Positions 8,320 through 52,600 of a stretch of 64,000 nucleotides of DNA are shown here, in pieces (position 1 is the first letter of the stretch; every line of letters starts with the position of its first letter). The stretch is from Lineus longissimus (taxonomy: Eukaryota; Nemertea; Pilidiophora; Heteronemertea; Lineidae), in the NCBI RefSeq assembly GCF_910592395.1, contig NC_088312.1, positions 3,968,001 through 4,032,000 on the forward strand, given 5' to 3'. The notes beneath the pieces are model-generated. The model ran no database searches. It had not been told where the DNA came from and saw only the letters and a program-made list of their open reading frames with translations. Both the position numbers and the translations under genes were made by a program.

Positions 8320-8408
<89 letters not shown>

Positions 8409-9179: not shown

Positions 9180-9185
9180 TTTATT
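9180..9185 (-). terminator. candidate poly(A) signal of the relaxin-like gene
   Basis: AATAAA on the minus strand, about 190 bases after the stop codon of the relaxin/insulin-like gene. Confidence 0.5.
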
Positions 9186-9373: not shown

Positions 9374-10224
9374 TCAGCAAAGTGAGGATAGCTGTCGCAG
9401 CGTACACTCCCGAAAACAGCATTCCCGAAACTGTGAGAAACGTGCTTTTCGTACGAAGTACTCCGAATCTGAATCAATCGAACCTGAAAAAGAATAGCAA
9501 AAGGTTAAAAGAAGTGTTCAAACAGTATAACGGATGACATATGGTTGTCGAAATTGGTATGTGACGTGATAACATTAGGCCTAACTAAAACTTTACTTTG
9601 CTCAAAAGATTAAGAAAAAAGCTCCCGCAACCAGATATGGTGACATTTCAAGTAAGCATAAAATCATTCCAACTGCACCTCACAGATAGACAGTTGTTAG
9701 TTCACGAATGCCTCCTACGTGGCAGGATCAAAAGAAGCAGGTTCAGCCACCTAGGAGTGAAATGATAAACTGATATAACAATGCGTAGCATATTTGCGTG
9801 ATTAGACCAAGTTTATCCGGTTAACGGGCAACTATTTTTGTGCAATCTTTATGATTGTGTGATGATATCAACTTATTTATCATAAGGAGAGCATTTTTGC
9901 CTCCGAAATGTTGCCAGGAATGACAGTTTATTGGCCGACGGCATACAAAGGTAAGCTTCCGACACCCTCCCATCAACTAGTTAGGCATCCTGAAGCTCAG
10001 GCCAACACCCCGGTCGGCACAATCGACTGAGGACTGACTCTATTATGATACTTACGTTTTCGCCTCTTGCTCACCAAACAGCTCATTTGAAAAGCTCTGT
10101 GTATATCTTTGGAGCATAACCTCTGCGGCACATCTGGATCCAAAAGAATGGCATCTGTCTGCGCATTGAAATGTATAATGAGCACCAGAAACGAAAGAAG
10201 TACCAGCAGTTTTTGGTAAATCAT
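9374..10224 (-). CDS. relaxin/insulin-family peptide precursor (RGP-like)
   Basis: A secreted hormone precursor of 92 residues. Exon 1 (10056-10224) encodes the signal peptide MIYQKLLVLLSFLVLIIHFN, then B-chain Cys37 and Cys49 with 11 residues between them (RLCSKDIHRAFQMSC), and a basic site VSKRRKR. The intron (9484-10055) is phase 1, the conserved position in the insulin superfamily. Exon 2 (9374-9483) encodes a short C-peptide beginning SIDSDSEYF, a basic RKAR site and an A chain CCFRECTLRQLSSLC ending directly at TGA. This fits CC-x3-C-x8-C exactly. The usual Gly after the first B-chain Cys is absent. C-x(3)-[FI]-H-x-A, CxVSKR and KRSIDS resemble starfish relaxin-like gonad-stimulating peptide as I remember it. 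The frame stays open upstream to an ATG at 10257; I prefer 10224 because it directly follows an acceptor-like TTCTCATTACAG. An extra C-peptide exon cannot be excluded. Confidence 0.85.
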
Positions 10225-10226
10225 CT

Positions 10227-11802
10227 GTAATGAGAAGGTAATGTAAGTAATTAGCATCAGGGACGATAGCTGAAAATTACTCTATAAACCGTACGTTCGC
10301 AAAGCCGATGCACAGCCGGTTGTCCTTGTCATTTAGGAACTACCCCCGGGCCTAAACCCTCAACGAAGAGAATATAACAGATATCTCATCTTTTGGTTCC
10401 TCGTCATCACTTGAATCTAAACTGCAACGTAAAAACCTAGAAAGTAGCGTTGGTTGAATGGCAGAGGACAGTGAATTGTCCTCGGGGTTTGAGGCAGTCG
10501 TCCTAATCTGGACACGGTAAAAACACCTCTTTGATCTACAGACCATAAAAATTGAACGGTGCCCTCTCTATGAAGAACTTCAACACCTGAAAACCTAGCT
10601 GCTTCAGGAGATGGTGAGAAAAGTTGAATAGTTGACCTTTTTTACTTCATGCAACCGTATTGAGACATAAAAGTGGCGAGGATAATACCCTCAATCAGTG
10701 CAGCAATGATATCAAAAACCTTCAAAACTCTCTTGACAACGTCCTCCATTGCACTGTTTGTTGTGGGACGTCATCAGTTGTAGCACACAAATAGGTAAAT
10801 TAATCCATACTTTTTTACATTCGTAGCAAAAATCAACGTATCATGACCGCAAGGTCTGTATCCCTCGAAGGACAACGCTGTTTCGAGAAGGAATTGCGTG
10901 AAAGTAGCCATATTGCGCCAGGCAAAATGAATTGCCCTTTCGTTGTTTGTAGCCTGCTTGGGGCCCGCGGCTGTATTTTTGGTCGATGATTTGTCACGGA
11001 ATGGACTAAAACATTCTCAGCCCCATGAGGGATCGACGAGAGAAGTCAGATAATGAGCGTTATTACTCGCGAACTTTGCGAATTGGCGGCGACTGTAAAG
11101 TTTAGTTACCACTGGAGCTTGCCAATAAAGACTCGATAAGGAAAACGACTAGATCGAGAGTTGGCCAAAGGCCAATATTTTCTTCTCGACCAAATGTCAG
11201 ATTCTTTCATGTTACGAGCTGAAACATACGAGAAGAAAGAAAAATATCAACCTTGAACAGAAGCCTTCAATATGCACGAAATGCAATCATTTCATTGTAC
11301 GAATAAGAGCCTGCAAAGATAACTCAACTGTCATTAACCAACGAGAAGTTTCCCCTTGCCAGTTGTTAAAACCGTCACGGCTCTTTCCGAGAGACCCTTG
11401 GGCCTCCTTCTGGCCCATTATTCCTTGTTTGTAGATGATAATCCGGGAGCCACACGTACAGATATTGTTTACAAGATCTCCTCTTCGTAGCGCCATCAAT
11501 CTACTTCGAGTTACAATGAAAGTGGCAGGTGCATAAATAAGAAATGAGTCTAAAGATGGAAAGATCGAAAGTGATACGACTGCTGATGCTGTGTTAGTTC
11601 CAGTAATGAAAGTTTGATCTCTAACAACTGCATATGTTATCTAAATATATAATCTGTGATTTTTTGGAAATCTCATATATAAAGTCAAGGAGACGAACAT
11701 ATCGAAAGAGTAAAAAATCCTCATTTGGACTAAGTTTGGAGACAACCTCTTACACAAATCATTGCATTATCTTATGGTTACTGACATTTTAGCAGCACTA
11801 TA
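10227..11802. other. region upstream of the relaxin-like gene
   Basis: A pyrimidine-rich tract ending in CAG abuts the coding start, so a 5' UTR exon may lie somewhere above 10226. No promoter element could be fixed. Short open frames on both strands lack splice context. Confidence 0.35.
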
Positions 11803-33137: not shown

Positions 33138-34211
33138 CTATATCGTTTTACTTCTTCTCTTCAAGCCAAGAAAGTACACTTTCACCTCTCGACGAAATTT
33201 GGATGAACTCAAGAGATAGATATAAAAATTTACCGTCGGGTTGAGAAAGCGTATAAGGTAAGCGACATTCCATGTCATAACGCGGTAATGGCGAGTGAAG
33301 AAGGTGCGCTCCCGATTGATGTATTTCCAAAAGATGAAATCAGCTTGGTATGGCAGGCAAAATAAGAGAAAAGCGAAGGTGTTGGCTAATAACATGACGG
33401 TGACAGAAGCTTCTTGTCCGCGTAATTTTTCGGCACCGCCCGTATCACCGATTAGTGATTTTCGTTGCGCACTGCTTTGGGAAAGAGTCAGGAGAATTCG
33501 AACATTTGCCAATAGAAGTAATGAAAATGGCAACCACTGATTCACAACTGTGCCTTCGTTGTAGTAAATAAGATAGTAAGTTTCGTCTAGGTGCAAGTCA
33601 CATGACCAGTAGTCTAGGGTGCGAGAGTATTGCAAGTCACCCCAAAGCAGGCACGGGATAGCTCTGGCCACATTGATAAGTGCGGCGATGGAAAGCGCCA
33701 CTTTTGCTCGGGATTTCGTGCACAGAACTGGCGCTTTCATGGGGAAAACTACTGCTATCATCCGGTCAAACGTCATGAGGACCAATGTCCAGCTAGACAG
33801 CGCACTGCCTGTGAATAAGAAAAACAAGAGAGAGCGACAAAATGGCGTGCTAACAAACACGGAGCCGAAATTCCTGCGCAGATAGTGATGGATCAAACCA
33901 TTCGTAACGTAATGGAAATCAGCCAACGCAAGGGCAGTCATGTAGAAGCCGGTGGATGTCCGACGATAACTTGGCTGATATAAAATTAATAGGGACAAAA
34001 GGTTCCCAACTGCACCCATGACCATCAAGATCGGGGGAATATACATATTATATGCGTTATAGATGCCTTGAAGGTATCTCAGCTGTTCTAATAAGTCCGG
34101 CGAGAGAGCTTCCGCCGCGGTTGAAGTTGTATGACTCCTGTATAATCTCTCGTCGGAGCTACGAGAGATATCGACGGTGCTTGGTCCCAGTAGCGACGTC
34201 ATAGTTACCAT
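33138..34211 (-). CDS. rhodopsin-class (class A) G protein-coupled receptor, peptide-receptor type
   Basis: An intronless frame of 357 residues. Seven hydrophobic segments lie at about 55-80, 88-112, 123-153, 169-191, 222-245, 268-293 and 309-333. Class A landmarks are present: GN70 in TM1, LALAD98 in TM2, Cys125 at the start of TM3, Cys204 in extracellular loop 2, CLPYQ in TM6 and NP324-325 (NPTVNFYIY) in TM7. The DRY motif reads D149-R150-M151. TM4 lacks a clear central Trp, and TM7 has one extra residue before the Tyr (NPxxxxY). The N-terminus has no signal peptide and the tail is short and basic. The overall pattern suits the peptide-receptor branch that is expanded in marine invertebrates, but the ligand cannot be told. 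A second ATG lies three codons in. Confidence 0.92.
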   Translation of the reverse strand: MVTMTSLLGPSTVDISRSSDERLYRSHTTSTAAEALSPDLLEQLRYLQGIYNAYNMYIPPILMVMGAVGNLLSLLILYQPSYRRTSTGFYMTALALADFHYVTNGLIHHYLRRNFGSVFVSTPFCRSLLFFLFTGSALSSWTLVLMTFDRMIAVVFPMKAPVLCTKSRAKVALSIAALINVARAIPCLLWGDLQYSRTLDYWSCDLHLDETYYLIYYNEGTVVNQWLPFSLLLLANVRILLTLSQSSAQRKSLIGDTGGAEKLRGQEASVTVMLLANTFAFLLFCLPYQADFIFWKYINRERTFFTRHYRVMTWNVAYLIRFLNPTVNFYIYLLSSSKFRREVKVYFLGLKRRSKTI

Positions 34212-35060
34212 TTCAAGTAATATTTTGCTGCTTACAATCTATTCGAACTTTGGTGAAAACGGAATTTCATTAACAACACAATTCAAATGACAACGCTGGT
34301 TACAAATTAAGATCCAGTACATACCGAAATGATGATAGGGAATCGCGTCCTTGAAGGTTAACATTCTCACGCCGACAGACCCGGCACCCCATACTTCTGC
34401 CGAAAATGTACTACAAATTAGAGAGAGATCATAAATCGTCCATGTATTGGTTATCGCATCGCATAGATGTCAACATGGAAATGGGGAGTAGTCTGAATGA
34501 TGTAATGTACTCCAGCCGAAACACACACAAAGAGTCTCATTTTTCCGATTACTCGACGCACCTCCATTTACTATTATCAAAAAGTTTTTACTATACCGGT
34601 AATTGGAGTGGTAAGTAGCTGATGAGCGTGAAAAACGTGTCTCGGTTGCTATTGTAATCGATATCATAAAAGAATGAGGGTTTCACACCTTATTACATTT
34701 CATTAAGCCTGTTCGGTTATATTTGAGAGCTACTCCTCCCGAATTACCTCCACCCGCACTCGCGGAGACTTTACACAATTCAGGAAAAAGGTAGCCATGT
34801 CACAAGATACCTCTCATCAGGTGTCATGAGTTTTATTTCATAATGAATTTTTTCTCTCGCTCGAATTGACTCGATTTCAATCCAGTTTCATACACTCAGT
34901 AGTGCTCTTTTATTTAACACTGGACTGATATTACATAGGTTGATCCATATACACCATGTTAAAACCTCCACGGAATACTCTAGTAAGCTGATACTAACTG
35001 ACCTTAAAACGGCGGCTGCAGCCTGGCAAAAGAATCTGACGGCGTCATCTCACTATACGT
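34212..35060. other. intergenic region between divergent genes (GPCR and 35.2-kb gene)
   Basis: The two genes are transcribed away from each other. No further gene is seen. Confidence 0.4.
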
Positions 35061-46600: not shown

Positions 46601-49600
46601 GGAAGATTCATGAAAGAAGATAAAAGAACAACAGAATGGAATTCACTTCATGCAAGGGAAAAACCAGTGACGACATCAATAGTTGGCATGCTGTGACAAC
46701 AGTTTGTACCTGGTCACCAGGCGGATCCTTGTCCACAACAGGATTCTGCAACTTTAGACGGCAGTTATCAGTCACATCAGTTGATGCGTATTCCTTTGAA
46801 TCGCTAGAAGCTGCATCAGCAAGATTCAGGTCCAAATCCACAGCTTTTAAAACGCTGTCCTCCTGCTCTCCTTTCTTTCTAATTTTCGTCGTTTGGTTTG
46901 GGCGCTTTTTCAATTGTCCTTGTTTAGTATTATCCTTTAAATTTCCTTTCTTTGAAGTTCCTTTAGTCCACGTCCTGGCTTTCTTCTTCTTTTTCTCTGC
47001 CAACTCAACTTGTCCCTGCTCTTGCAAGCTCTATGAATGATGGTAATATGAATAGTGACTACTACCAAATGTACCAAATGGATCGCCGATCAATAAATTT
47101 GATAAAGGATAAAGGATCATTGATTGTCGATTTGGTTCATTGCAGCCACGATATGGATACTGCATTAGCAAGAATGAAACAGAAGCTGATTTAGTGTGCA
47201 TAATTGAATTCTCTAGTATAAGTTTGCCTTAATGGGCTTACGGCCGCTGAAAGTAGATTTCATGGATGTGAAGGTTTTTGCTGATGATGTGAGATAAAGG
47301 TTGAAGAGGGCTAACGAGAACCATCAAATCGAATTGTATTGGCGTAAGGCATGTTGATGTAACGACTTGAGTGGGAGCAAGGCGTATTAAGTTGAGATGT
47401 ATATCTCTTTTGAGATTTATCACATCCAAACATGAGCAAGTTTATACATAAAAACACCAAGTTTCTTGGGTGATATAATTTCACAATACGTACACAAAGT
47501 AAAGCAAAGTTCTTCAAAGCAAGCCTTAAAGTCGCTGAGAGGATATTATTCACGAATGTTCTTGAATAGAAAATAGGTTTAAGAAAGGTGTTGGCAAATT
47601 GGTAAGCATCAGGGACAAACTTGTTTACCCATGCAGAGTCAGAGAATGTGTTTGAAGGTTTTACAACATCAAAACCAAAGTAAGGATTACCATCTACCAA
47701 GAAGAAAAAATGTATTTCGAGTAGGCTAGAGAGCAAGTCATGCATCGAATTGCACCATTCCCACAAGAAAATAGGTAACATGAACACTGTGTTATATTCA
47801 AGGCGTTTTTGAGATCAAATTTCAAAATTCCTTAATTCAAAGATCAAGTTCAAGAGAAAGGAGTGCATAATGAAGAAAGGAGAAAAGTTTAAGAACCTTA
47901 TCAACAATCCTTTCTTTTAGTGGATGGCATGGTTTTACAGTTAAACGTCATTCAATGTCGAAGTTATCTAATGATCGCCCAACAAAATTCTTATCATTTT
48001 CCGTATTTTTATTGTAAAGTACACGAAGGCAAGTGTGTTCTCTCCTTTATTATTTACTTTTTCTACAAACTATAATGTGATCAAATGACACTACATGTAT
48101 AAATGAAACCAAGTATCTTTTCTATCAACATGCAAATATTCCTAGAGTCAATTTTTTAGTGGCTGTGAAAAAGTGCCTTCTACTTCCTGTCCCTTCAATA
48201 AGCCAATATCACGTTGCTGTGAGAGAAACTCGTGATATAACAAATCATCGTTGCTCGCAGAGAGATTCTGTCATGGTATAGTGCTTGATTGTAATTTCCA
48301 TTCATAACAAATAGGTCACGAACAGAATGCTGGGTAGGATAGGACCTAGTTCCCTATCTGTGCATGCATGCTAGTCACCTGAAGACCAACAAGTGTACTC
48401 ATATTTGTATCTCCTGCCTATAATCTCCCTTCGAATATCAAAATGGTGGCCATGCAGCAAAGTGTGAAAAGTATCAAAAAAATATCGTGATAAAGTTAAA
48501 ATTAAAGTCTATCCAACCCAACAAAGCTACCTAGTCTAACACACAGCCTGATGAACGGCAAAAGCTGGCTGATATAACTTTTCTATTTTAAGGTGGCACC
48601 GTTTATACTGCTTTTTTGCCTTCTTCTGGAAAAGTTCTCATTTCTATATAGAAAGGCTTTTTAATGACTTATCGAATAAAAATGTTTAATGATAATATTT
48701 TCTTACAATTGCAATACCAGTACAACATGTAAGGGGACTGGGTGATTATCATACTTGGAAAGTTGAGGTGGTCCAATGATTACAGTTTTTTGTCTGAATG
48801 AATGATGCGAACATACCTATCGCCAATTAAAGAACATTGACATAGACAGAATTTGATGATTTTTCCGATCAAACTGGTCATTCTTACAGCTTGAATAATT
48901 TATCTCTACGTGTAAGTGTAAGTATTCATAGGATACATAACACAAATAGTCATTCAAGGAAAAGAAATTAGAAAAAAATCAGACATTGGAAATCGTTCTT
49001 GATAAAAGTAAAAAAATCATCAAGTTCTGTAACTGAACCAAGCTGATGAAGACTAGACAGCTTTCCTGAGAGTCTGAGAAAATGTTACTACCATCACTGA
49101 TCTCTCCGGTCTTTTTGAGCAAATAGTTCTAGATATCGTCAAACAACCCGGAAAAAACTGGCCAAACATGTCACAGCCAAAGAAATTTCTGTCTGGTGTG
49201 AGGTGAGGTTTTTGTGTTCTGCGAAGCGGCGACCTGGCCTGGCAAGTTCAGGAAAAAAGTAACGTTAATTATAAAGGTGAATCATGAACTTGCTAACCAA
49301 AGGTCAGGAATGGATGTACTGTAATTTTCAAGAGAAGTGACCAACTTCTAAACACTAGAACTCTTTTTCAAATATATAAGGTCAGTTAGTTTATAGGCAA
49401 CACACCCCCTGTACTGGGTATGCATTGGATTTGTCATATCCAACATGCTTGTCATATCCAACATGCTTGTCATATCCAACATGCTGGTCATATCCAACAT
49501 GCTTGTCATATCCAACATGCTGGTCATATCCAACATGCTTGTCATATCCAACATGCTGGTCATATCCAACATGCTTGTCATAGCCAACATGCTGGTCATA

Positions 49601-52600
49601 TCCAACATGCTGGTCATATCCAACATGCTTGTCATATCCAACATGCTGGTCATATCCAACATTCTGGTCATATCCAACATGCTGGTCATATCCGACATGC
49701 TTGTCATATCCAACATGCTGGTCATATCCTAAATGCTGGTCATATCCAACATGCTGGTCATATCCAACATGCTGGTCATATCCAACATGCTGGTCATATC
49801 CAACATGCTGGTCATATCCAACATGCTTGTCATATCCAACATGCTGGTCATATCCAACATGCTGGTCATATCCAACATGCTGGTCATATCCGACATGCTG
49901 GTCATATCCGACATGCTGGTCATATCCAACATGCTTGTCATATCCAACATGCTGGTCATATCCAACATGCTGGTCATATCCAACATGCTGGTCATATTCA
50001 ACATGCTTGTCATATCCAACATGCTGGTCATATCCAACATTCTGGTCATATCCAACATGCTGGTCATATCCAACATGCTGGTCATATCCAACATGCTGGT
50101 CATATCCAACATGCTGGTCATATCCAACATGCTGGTCATATCCAACATGCTTGTCATATCCAACATGCTGGTCATATCCTAAATGCCCTCAATTGGCCAT
50201 TTCGGTTTGTCTTTTTGTGCTAGGACTGCTACTTCTTGACCAATGTATCTGTGCAGACGAGCAGGATATTGACAAATGTCAACTGGGTCACTGTTAAACA
50301 ACAACGATGATTTCTTTAAAGTTAGATTTTTCATTGACTCCAATTTTACTCTAATTTCCTACTTATCTGCTGAAAATAAAACATTTCAACTCACCCCTTC
50401 AGTATCGCGCTTGACTGTTAAACCTTGCTTCATGGCATCATCAAGTTTGACGGTAGGAAGCAGTGGTGCTTCAAGAAGCTCATCTGAAACCAGGGAAATG
50501 ACCTGATTAGTACCCATGGCATCTGGAATACCTAATTCACAAGAAATATGCAATCGATACTGGTAATTAACAACACCCTGTCAATGGAGTACACAGTACT
50601 TGAATGAATTGTTCTCTTAAAACCAGCACTTTGCCAATTATTCAGCATATCGAGACACATTCATCACAATCAGTCGTCAAGTCAACAATTTCACTGGGAA
50701 TGTTCGGCATATTAGGTATATCAGTCTATAGCCCTCCCACTACAAGATACGGCAAAGCGCAATATTTTCATGCATTTTTCGCATTTCACAAAAATTTTAA
50801 ATTTGAAATCTTTCATAACATTTCGCACAACCAGCGTTTTTTAGATAACTTTTAACAATTTTAACGCCAAAGAAATTGTACCTTCTCATTTTCTGTTTGA
50901 AATTCTGGTGCAGATCAGTTAGCTTTACATTTGTACAATAGGGCCCGCAATAGGGTTCCATTCAGAAACTCATGTATGACTTATTAATTTTGTATCAATA
51001 GTTTTGATATCGACTGAGGTGCGGAAAGGGCATTGTGATGCTCCTACGTAATTTACTTTAATGTACTCTTGATTCATTGAAAGTTGTGGGATATAGATGG
51101 CAACGCTTTGAAGTTGTGTTTTATCCATTGTTTTCAGACATGTATCTTCCTCTCCCCACAATTTTTCTAGGCCGCTTCATTGATGTGGATTTTGAACTTC
51201 TTGATGCAACTCTTTTGATGTTGTTTCCCTTTCATAAAATTCGCCTTTACCTCAAACAGCACGCCTATGCATTTCTTTTTATTCAAACATCGCCAAAGGA
51301 AGGTTATTTGATGTTTATGATGTTTTGAGGTCTTATCCAGAACTATTAACTATTAACTTTATCATCACTAATCTGGAGCTTGCTCATAAGGAGGCCTAAC
51401 CCAATCAGGTAGCTCATAATCGATATTATTCATTTAACTTCTGATTAATGGGAAAACATATAAAAAAGACTCGATTGCATATGCAGATTTGTGCTGCTGT
51501 TAGGGCGACGAAGATGACATCACACGTATAGTACCCTGTATCTCCTGGTTACCATCCCCGCCTGTGTCACCGCCACCACCATCAAAGTGATGTGCCCGGC
51601 CTGTTTTCTTCTTTCGTCTTCGGCCAACACCATCCACATCACCACCACCACTGCCACCATTGCCACCACCGCTACTACCACTAAAGCCACTACTATGACT
51701 GTCTTCTTTATTACCGAACTGATCAGGTGGAGGAGAGGGGGTACTGGCCACTGGGGGAAGAACTACCGGTGGGAGGACGGGGTTTGCTTTATCCCAGGGA
51801 TCACCACCTTTTCCTGTGCAGAACAAAGCAAGCAAGCAAATTATGAACATGTGCAGATAGCAAACCAAAATATACAGCATGAATTTAAATTCAACCAATA
51901 AAGCATGTTCGAGCTTGAAATAAGCATGCATTGGAAGCAGGCAAGCAAGCATTAAACAGAATTGCAAAGGAACATGGTTGACATCTCGCTGTATTGTATC
52001 GAACCTCAGCAACATGCAGCCAATATAGCAACAGCTAGTTGCCTCATCAAATTGACAAAATGAATGGAATAGGATGAAACATAACAGAATCATGCTCGAA
52101 ACAGTTGCAAGGTGGCTTCCAGTCTATCAAGGGAAGAAAGGGTTATAGTGAAGAGGGTTGTGAAACTGTAAGTTGGCAAAATGTGTTGGTAACCATTACA
52201 GTATCTGTAAAAATAATTCTGATGCATCCCAGAGATACACTCTCGACAGGAACTCAGAAGTGTTGACTCCCCGCACTCTCCCCGGTTACTCCTTAATCAA
52301 AACTGGAAAACATTTGACCAACTTTTAAGCATGCTTTTTTAACTTTCCATTATTCCATTTCATCATTCACTCCTTTGATTTCTTCAGTGCAATGAGGCCA
52401 CAATTAGCACTAGATAGTGCAGGAAAATCAGCCAAGAACCTATAGGTTAGAAGGTAGGTCAGGAACAGAGGGAACAAAACCAAATTGTCTCACGAAAGAA
52501 ACAAATTTCAGATATAAAATGCTTTAGGTTATATCGTCAGACTGATGCTGTTTTGAGAGCTGATCGCTGACTCAACCTGAGCCTCCTGAAACACTTCTCT

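What the first reader, a model, noticed from the sequence alone, without database searches (positions are those of the whole stretch)
9374..10224. A compact relaxin/insulin-family peptide gene, resembling echinoderm gonad-stimulating peptide
Seen directly: a signal peptide, B chain C-x11-C, basic sites, a phase-1 intron, and an A chain CC-x3-C-x8-C ending at the stop, all in one consistent two-exon frame. Known: this cysteine pattern and intron phase define the insulin superfamily; the absence of Gly after the first B-chain Cys, the F/I-H-x-A segment and the KRSIDS start of the C-peptide recall starfish relaxin-like gonad-stimulating peptide. Inferred: a reproductive or relaxin-type hormone. 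The C-peptide is very short (about 10-14 residues), which is unusual.
Basis: partly seen in the sequence, partly recalled or inferred. Interest (0 to 1): 0.88.

Follow-up and report, generated by a model that had tools for sequence, protein, structure and literature searches.

The report
Relaxin-like hormone gene in ribbon worm
The stretch most likely holds a small two-exon gene for an insulin/relaxin-type hormone in the bootlace worm Lineus longissimus, not in an echinoderm; it looks like a divergent sister of a second relaxin-like gene on the same chromosome.

Summary
On the MINUS strand, exon 1 (10224-10056) and exon 2 (9483-9374), joined by a phase-1 intron, encode 92 aa: signal-like start, C-x11-C B chain, KRRKR, and a CC-x3-C-x8-C A chain ending at the stop. 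None of 400 shuffled windows gave such an exon pair.

The organism is not an echinoderm. The assembly matches Lineus longissimus, phylum Nemertea, and a gene 548 kb away encodes exactly NCBI's Lineus protein LOC135488467. That gene is a second relaxin-like precursor of the same layout and is the closest B-chain relative found (single-comparison E 4e-6). Starfish RGP is also close (E 1e-5), but human IGF-1 is equally so. The Gly that marks RGP A chains is absent, and Pfam's cut-off is missed (13.7 against 23 bits).

Best reading: a divergent relaxin-type peptide acting on an RXFP/LGR3-type receptor; a receptor gene with that type's TM2 intron is present. No transcript, peptide or activity evidence was available. 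New member of a known kind; no database protein matches it.

The parts
10056..10224 (-). Coding exon 1: start codon, signal-like hydrophobic run, acidic linker, B chain and most of the KRRKR site (residues 1-56 and first base of residue 57)
   Evidence: hydropathy peak 3.49 over 11 residues
10078..10116 (-). B-chain core C37-SKDIHRAFQMS-C49
   Evidence: aligned with Lineus paralogue
9484..10055 (-). Phase-1 intron, GTAAGT...TTTTTCAG, 572 b
   Evidence: no transcript evidence
9374..9483 (-). Coding exon 2: end of KRRKR, C-peptide, A chain, TGA stop
9440..9481 (-). Short C-peptide SIDSDSEYFVRKAR (14 residues if both basic sites are cut)
   Evidence: cutting inferred
9377..9439 (-). A chain FSQFRECCFRECTLRQLSSLC (start inferred), CC-x3-C-x8-C, ends at the stop
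10225..10238 (-). Acceptor-like pyrimidine-rich stretch and CAG directly before the ATG: possible 5' untranslated intron; the paralogue has one 2 b before its ATG
   Evidence: inferred
9180..9185 (-). AATAAA, possible polyadenylation signal 189 b after the end of the stop-codon start position used in the script
   Evidence: consensus match only

Best explanation
A functional, divergent relaxin-type peptide hormone gene of the nemertean Lineus longissimus. The product enters the secretory pathway (inferred from the signal-like start), forms the three disulfides of the insulin fold (inferred from the cysteine spacing), and is cut at KRRKR and probably at RKAR to give a short B chain and an A chain that ends in Cys (inferred; the second site is weaker). 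The two-chain peptide most likely acts on an RXFP/LGR3-type G-protein-coupled receptor, by analogy with starfish RGP and Dilp8, perhaps in reproduction (inferred). It arose by duplication among insulin-family genes that still share chromosome 5, and is a sister or cousin of LOC135488467.
For: Complete two-exon structure with one phase-1 intron, rare in shuffles. Paralogue L008 on the same chromosome and strand, 548 kb away, same layout including an acceptor just before the ATG, passing Pfam Insulin at 26.3 bits and present in NCBI exactly as I spliced it. BLASTP to L008 E 4e-6 and to starfish RGP E 1e-5 (single comparisons); hhalign to starfish RGP 77%, E 2e-5. B chain scores higher against L008 (20), Asterias RGP (13) and relaxin-3 (13) than against IGF-1 (0) or insulin (-2). 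Signal peptide and B chain in one exon, no phase-2 intron: relaxin/Dilp8 layout, not Dilp7 (criterion). No long tail, no GIV[DE], short tail after the second B-chain Cys. A receptor gene on C9 with the phase-1 TM2 intron that marks RXFP/LGR3-type genes (criterion). Five of seven insulin-family loci seen, this one included, lie on C5, which is 6% of the genome.
Against: Pfam Insulin 13.7 bits, below the cut-off of 23, and the genome-wide Pfam search did not list this gene. A chain scores 24 with IGF-1 and 19 with Lineus insulin-type L002 but 4 with Asterias RGP and 2 with L008; its best solved matches are IGF-1, and its B chain alone found no solved chain. Whole mature peptide: IGF-1 z 5.15 against 5.12 for L008 and 4.53 for RGP. 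Starfish RGP as query found L008 only at E 6.1 and this gene not at all. No protein of fitting length in the 5.8-billion set matches it, so no annotation supports its expression. The R-x-x-x-R-x-x-I/V relaxin cassette (recalled) is only half kept (K-x-x-x-R-x-x-Q). No transcript or peptide data.
Confidence: 0.6

Rival explanations
1. An insulin/IGF-type ligand of the receptor tyrosine kinase that has lost its C-terminal extension and looks relaxin- or RGP-like by convergence, in the way PMC8286064 argues for echinoderm GSS.
For: A-chain core ECCFR-x-C-x-LR-x-L-x-x-x-C matches IGF-1; whole peptide z 5.15 with IGF-1, 3.82 with Lineus L002; C domain about as short as that of IGF-1.
Against: B chain scores 0 with IGF-1 and -2 with insulin, 20 with L008; no Gly after the first B-chain Cys, no aromatic B-chain tail, no GIV[DE], tetrabasic cut site; starfish RGP was shown to act on the LGR3-type receptor (PMC11863921).
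Confidence: 0.25
2. A decaying or unexpressed copy of the L008 gene.
For: Divergent, below Pfam's cut-off, no matching database protein although the paralogue is annotated.
Against: Open frame, all six cysteines, strong splice sites and a basic cut site are intact.
Confidence: 0.1
3. A true orthologue of echinoderm RGP/GSS.
For: C-x-x-D-[FI]-H-x-A in the B chain and CT-x-x-QLS-x-x-C in the A chain; E 1e-5.
Against: Nemertean genome; Gly before the third A-chain Cys absent; the same genome holds L008, closer in the B chain; starfish RGP does not find this gene.
Confidence: 0.04
4. A chance arrangement of motifs.
For: Rules chosen after the fact; at most about 0.4 chance pairs expected genome-wide from the shuffle rates.
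Against: 0 of 400 shuffled windows; similarity to a linked paralogue beyond nearly all cysteine-preserving shuffles.
Confidence: 0.01

Closest known systems
Lineus longissimus LOC135488467 (NCBI 'uncharacterized protein'; L008, P0001)
   Same: Same chromosome and strand, two coding exons, phase-1 intron, acceptor just before the ATG; C-x-KD-[IL]-x-RA B chain; KR then SI[DE][ST][DE]S; A chain ends in Cys
   Different: 118 aa with a long C-peptide; Gly after the first B-chain Cys and before the third A-chain Cys; passes Pfam
[quoted passage not shown]
   Same: No Gly after the first B-chain Cys; C-x-x-D-[FI]-H-x-A; CT-x-x-QLS-x-x-C ending at the stop; two coding exons with a phase-1 intron
   Different: Echinoderm; long C-peptide with KR sites; Gly before the third A-chain Cys; Met, not Arg, before the B-chain Ala
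Human relaxin-2 and relaxin-3 (chain letters recalled)
   Same: [RK]-[ED]-x-x-RA B-chain helix; A chain ending in Cys
   Different: Gly residues at both chain positions; long C-peptide (recalled)
Insulin-like growth factor 1
   Same: A-chain core ECCFR-x-C-x-LR-x-L-x-x-x-C; short C domain
   Different: No GIVD, no CG and no B-chain tail here; no extension behind the last Cys; a tetrabasic cut site

Membership tests
Insulin superfamily | C-x11-C B chain and CC-x3-C-x8-C A chain in that order | tested here: met
Insulin superfamily | Phase-1 intron in the C domain | tested here: met
   criterion; splicing itself not observed
Insulin superfamily | Pfam PF00049 gathering score (23 bits) | tested here: not met
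   13.7 bits; paralogue L008 26.3 bits
Relaxin/Dilp8 type | Two coding exons, signal peptide and B chain together, one phase-1 intron, no phase-2 intron | tested here: met
   criterion PMC11863921. Insulin-type genes can share this layout
Relaxin/Dilp8 type | Places with relaxins rather than IGF on sequence | tested here: inconclusive
   B chain relaxin-like, A chain IGF-like; no tree made
Relaxin/Dilp8 type | R-x-x-x-R-x-x-I/V B-chain cassette (recalled, vertebrate relaxins) | tested here: not met
   K-x-x-x-R-x-x-Q in the translation; starfish RGP lacks it too
Relaxin/Dilp8 type | Acts on an RXFP/LGR3-type receptor | not testable with these tools
   A gene with the type's TM2 phase-1 intron is present on C9; no binding data
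Echinoderm RGP/GSS | Gly before the third A-chain Cys | tested here: not met
   Glu82; criterion PMC6389678
Echinoderm RGP/GSS | A chain ends in Cys | tested here: met
   criterion
Echinoderm RGP/GSS | Echinoderm gene | tested here: not met
   Lineus longissimus
Echinoderm RGP/GSS | Gonadotropic activity | not testable with these tools
   No experiment
IGF | C-terminal D and E domains behind the last A-chain Cys | tested here: not met
   TGA directly after C92; criterion
Dilp7/multinsulin type | Additional phase-2 intron between signal peptide and B chain | tested here: not met
   Signal-like start and B chain in one exon; criteria

The most novel reading that the evidence does not exclude
Lineus keeps two relaxin-type hormones and an RXFP/LGR3-type receptor, so the relaxin-LGR3 reproductive axis known from starfish, flies and vertebrates also runs in nemerteans, with the window peptide as a fast-evolving second ligand that has taken on RGP-like B-chain features on its own; the two ligand genes and an LGR4-type receptor gene between them still share a 550 kb stretch of chromosome 5.
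Probability: 0.35. Interest if true: 0.6.

Novelty: new member of a known kind. Interest (0 to 1): 0.42.

Why it matters
PMC11863921 traces relaxin-LGR3 signalling to the bilaterian ancestor and reports LGR3-type receptors lost in urochordates, molluscs, bryozoans, platyhelminths and nematodes (abstract); in the passages found there, nemerteans are named for Dilp7 and LGR4 and in the species list only. A linked pair of relaxin-type genes plus a receptor gene with the LGR3-type TM2 intron in a nemertean gives a spiralian in which ligand, receptor and a reproductive role could be tested directly. The window gene also shows that a Pfam search of the genome can miss such divergent peptides.

Tried and rejected
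Echinoderm origin: rejected on assembly size, contig lengths and the NCBI name of the linked gene. Database search with the window peptide: 2 candidates shared words, none scored E<=10. Search with the paralogue alone: 1 of 8 candidates at E<=10, itself. The A1 profile search returned 4 of 70 candidates, among them starfish RGPs, but A1 contained Asterias RGP chains, so it is circular; I rely instead (and A3 contains L008, which may drive its 94.6%). Starfish RGP against this genome: E 6.1 for L008's exon 1 and 6.7 for an unrelated-looking place on C17; the window gene not listed. The idea that the C5 receptor between the two peptide genes is the relaxin receptor was set aside: no TM2 intron and a phase-0 CAG|GTATGT after TM7, the LGR4-type mark; that donor was picked by eye among 6 listed. 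Mitochondrial COX1 as a test of the genetic code did not complete. Structure prediction, a family tree and a receptor tree were not run. A relaxin mention in a nemertean toxin paper (PMC12846013) turned out to be the word relaxing (passages).

Full report
WHAT IS THERE. The window's minus strand carries a two-exon frame as described. Exon 1 (10224-10056) encodes MIYQK and a strongly hydrophobic run (11-residue mean hydropathy 3.49), an acidic linker, and QRLCSKDIHRAFQMSCLVSKRRK. The donor is C|GTAAGT at 10055 and the acceptor TTTTTCAG ends at 9484. Exon 2 (9483-9374) completes R57, then SIDSDSEYFVRKAR, then FSQFRECCFRECTLRQLSSLC and TGA. The product is 92 aa. An upstream in-frame ATG (10257) would add 11 residues, but an acceptor-like TTCTCATTACAG stands directly before ATG 10224, so the shorter start is preferred; this is inference.

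CHANCE. One qualifying exon combination (two acceptors) in the real window; none in 400 dinucleotide-shuffled windows, with 0.005 A-type and 0.0125 B-type exons per shuffled window. The rules were set after seeing the gene, and the product of the rates allows up to about 0.4 chance pairs in the whole genome. In 264 kb of contiguous real sequence the stop-free CC-x3-C-x8-C motif occurs only here.

WHICH ORGANISM. The window is G000:C5:3968001-4032000 in an unnamed 391,118,348-base assembly of 30 contigs; C5 is 23,929,194 b. Lineus longissimus tnLinLong1.1 has 391 Mb in 32 scaffolds, 19 chromosomes, chromosome 5 of 23.94 Mb, chromosome 9 of 20.55 Mb and chromosome 19 of 13.63 Mb (PMC8593623, part 1 of 2 of the text); the held C9 and C20 are 20.54 and 13.63 Mb. 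The contig named for P0001 is 23,943,388 b, about 14 kb longer than the held C5, so the versions may differ. The spliced gene I read at C5:4.526 Mb is letter for letter NCBI LOC135488467 of Lineus longissimus. Lineus is a nemertean, a lophotrochozoan protostome. The echinoderm attribution is not supported.

RELATIVES IN THE GENOME. A Pfam Insulin search of the genome gave 8 matches at E<=10 that I group into 6 gene loci: four on C5 (22.27, 10.68, 6.81 and 4.53 Mb), one on C1, one on C3 (counts are lower bounds). The window gene is not among them, so it makes seven loci, five of them on C5, which holds 6% of the genome. Three have an A chain with an extra Cys (GIVCECC) that I recall from molluscan insulins (L003, L006, L007), one is insulin-like (L002), one IGF-like with a long tail (L001) (types are my reading). 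The 4.53 Mb locus (L008) is a relaxin-type precursor: B chain CGKDLPRAMFIACG, A chain CCKAGCSLRDLAGAC, Pfam 26.3 bits over the cut-off of 23. It shares with the window gene the minus strand, two coding exons, the phase-1 intron and an acceptor-like site just before the ATG. The two lie 548 kb apart.

HOW CLOSE. Window peptide against L008: 37% over 30 residues of the B chain and C-peptide start, E 4e-6 for a single comparison. Against starfish RGP P0002: E 1e-5; hhalign probability 77% (E 2e-5) with the window peptide alone, 94.6% with L008 in the profile. With cysteines held, shuffles reaching the free-C score, of 1000: L008 0 (z 5.12), P0002 0 (4.53), P0003 0 (4.19), Lineus L002 0 (3.82), human IGF-1 0 (5.15), insulin 3 (3.42), L006 10 (2.70), L001 29 (2.22); in local alignment 2, 0, 1, 1, 0, 52, 33 and 26. 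Membership in the superfamily is therefore beyond the chance level of these tests; the subfamily is not settled. By chain, B favours L008 (20), Asterias RGP and relaxin-3 (13 each), P0003 (12) and relaxin-2 (10) over IGF-1 (0), insulin (-2) and INSL3 (-3), while A favours IGF-1 (24), L002 (19), L001 (11) and INSL3 (9) over relaxin-2 (5), RGP (4) and L008 (2). The structural signs (short B-chain tail, no GIV[DE], A chain ending in Cys, tetrabasic cut site) lean to relaxin type. Against: Pfam 13.7 bits, below cut-off; no database match; the B chain alone found no solved chain; starfish RGP as query found L008 only at E 6.1 and the window gene not at all.

RECEPTORS. A recalled RXFP1 transmembrane fragment gave 41 matches at E<=1e-6 in the genome; I read 3 of these places. 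The best (C9:5000872-5001414, 39% identity, E 1.3e-37) has a phase-1 intron inside TM2 (KNLC, split Ala codon, SDFLMGVYL), which PMC11863921 gives as an RXFP/LGR3 mark absent from LGR4-type genes (section read). A second (C5:4275536-4276785, 42% identity) lies between the two peptide genes; its best solved relative is relaxin receptor 1 (249.6 bits against 138.4 for the TSH receptor), but it lacks the TM2 intron and has a phase-0 donor-like site after TM7, the LGR4-type mark. The C20 match has what looks like a phase-0 intron before TM2. No receptor tree was made.

MECHANISM. Shown: the DNA features, the linked paralogue, the receptor genes. Inferred: secretion, disulfides, cutting at KRRKR and RKAR, action on the LGR3-type receptor, and a reproductive role, by analogy with starfish RGP1 and RGP2, which act on RXFP/LGR3 (PMC11863921: abstract, sections 3, 5, 6, 13, 15, 18 and passages), and with Dilp8. 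PMC8286064 (abstract and parts 1-2 of 3 of the Results) argued instead that GSS acts on the receptor kinase. If RKAR is not cut, the A chain carries an N-terminal extension.

NOVELTY. A search of the 5.8-billion protein set, limited by the tool to 0.55-1.75 times the query's length, found no match, while the paralogue is there; so the gene is apparently unannotated, though a longer fused model would be missed. Thiel et al. (PMC8557429, passages) report various insulin-like peptides in nemerteans and did not examine leucine-rich-repeat receptors; Feng et al. searched the Lineus proteome. Supplements were not open to me, so L008, or this peptide, may already be listed there. The listings of my paper searches showed no paper devoted to a nemertean relaxin-type gene.

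Noticed in passing
L008 (C5 around 4526073-4526705, minus strand): Second relaxin-type gene, identical to NCBI 'uncharacterized protein LOC135488467'; its B chain resembles vertebrate relaxin more than the window peptide does (relaxin-2 total 44 against 15).
   Followed up: yes
L033 (C5:4275536-4276785, minus strand): LGR-type receptor gene, best solved relative relaxin receptor 1, lying between the two relaxin-type genes; intron pattern suggests LGR4 type.
   Followed up: partly
L034 (C9:4999501-5003000): Receptor gene with the phase-1 TM2 intron that marks RXFP/LGR3-type genes.
   Followed up: partly
C6, about 2.80-3.13 Mb of the same genome: 22 of the 41 matches to the RXFP1 fragment lie here in a tandem-like array; 7 of the 22 contain stop codons.
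   Followed up: no
L003, L006, L007 (C5:10.68 Mb, C1:2.49 Mb, C3:20.54 Mb): Insulin-type A chains with an extra Cys (GIVCECC), recalled as typical of molluscan insulins.
   Followed up: no
window 33141-34238, minus strand: Uninterrupted 366-residue class-A GPCR frame (7tm_1 87.2 bits); nearest solved chains are ghrelin and TRH receptors at only 47-49 bits.
   Followed up: partly
window 49433-50179: Minisatellite of 41.5 copies of an 18-base unit, 95% matches, leaving long open frames on both strands.
   Followed up: no
window 8320-8408: Perfect ATG trinucleotide run, 29.7 copies, about 1 kb beyond the gene's 3' end.
   Followed up: no
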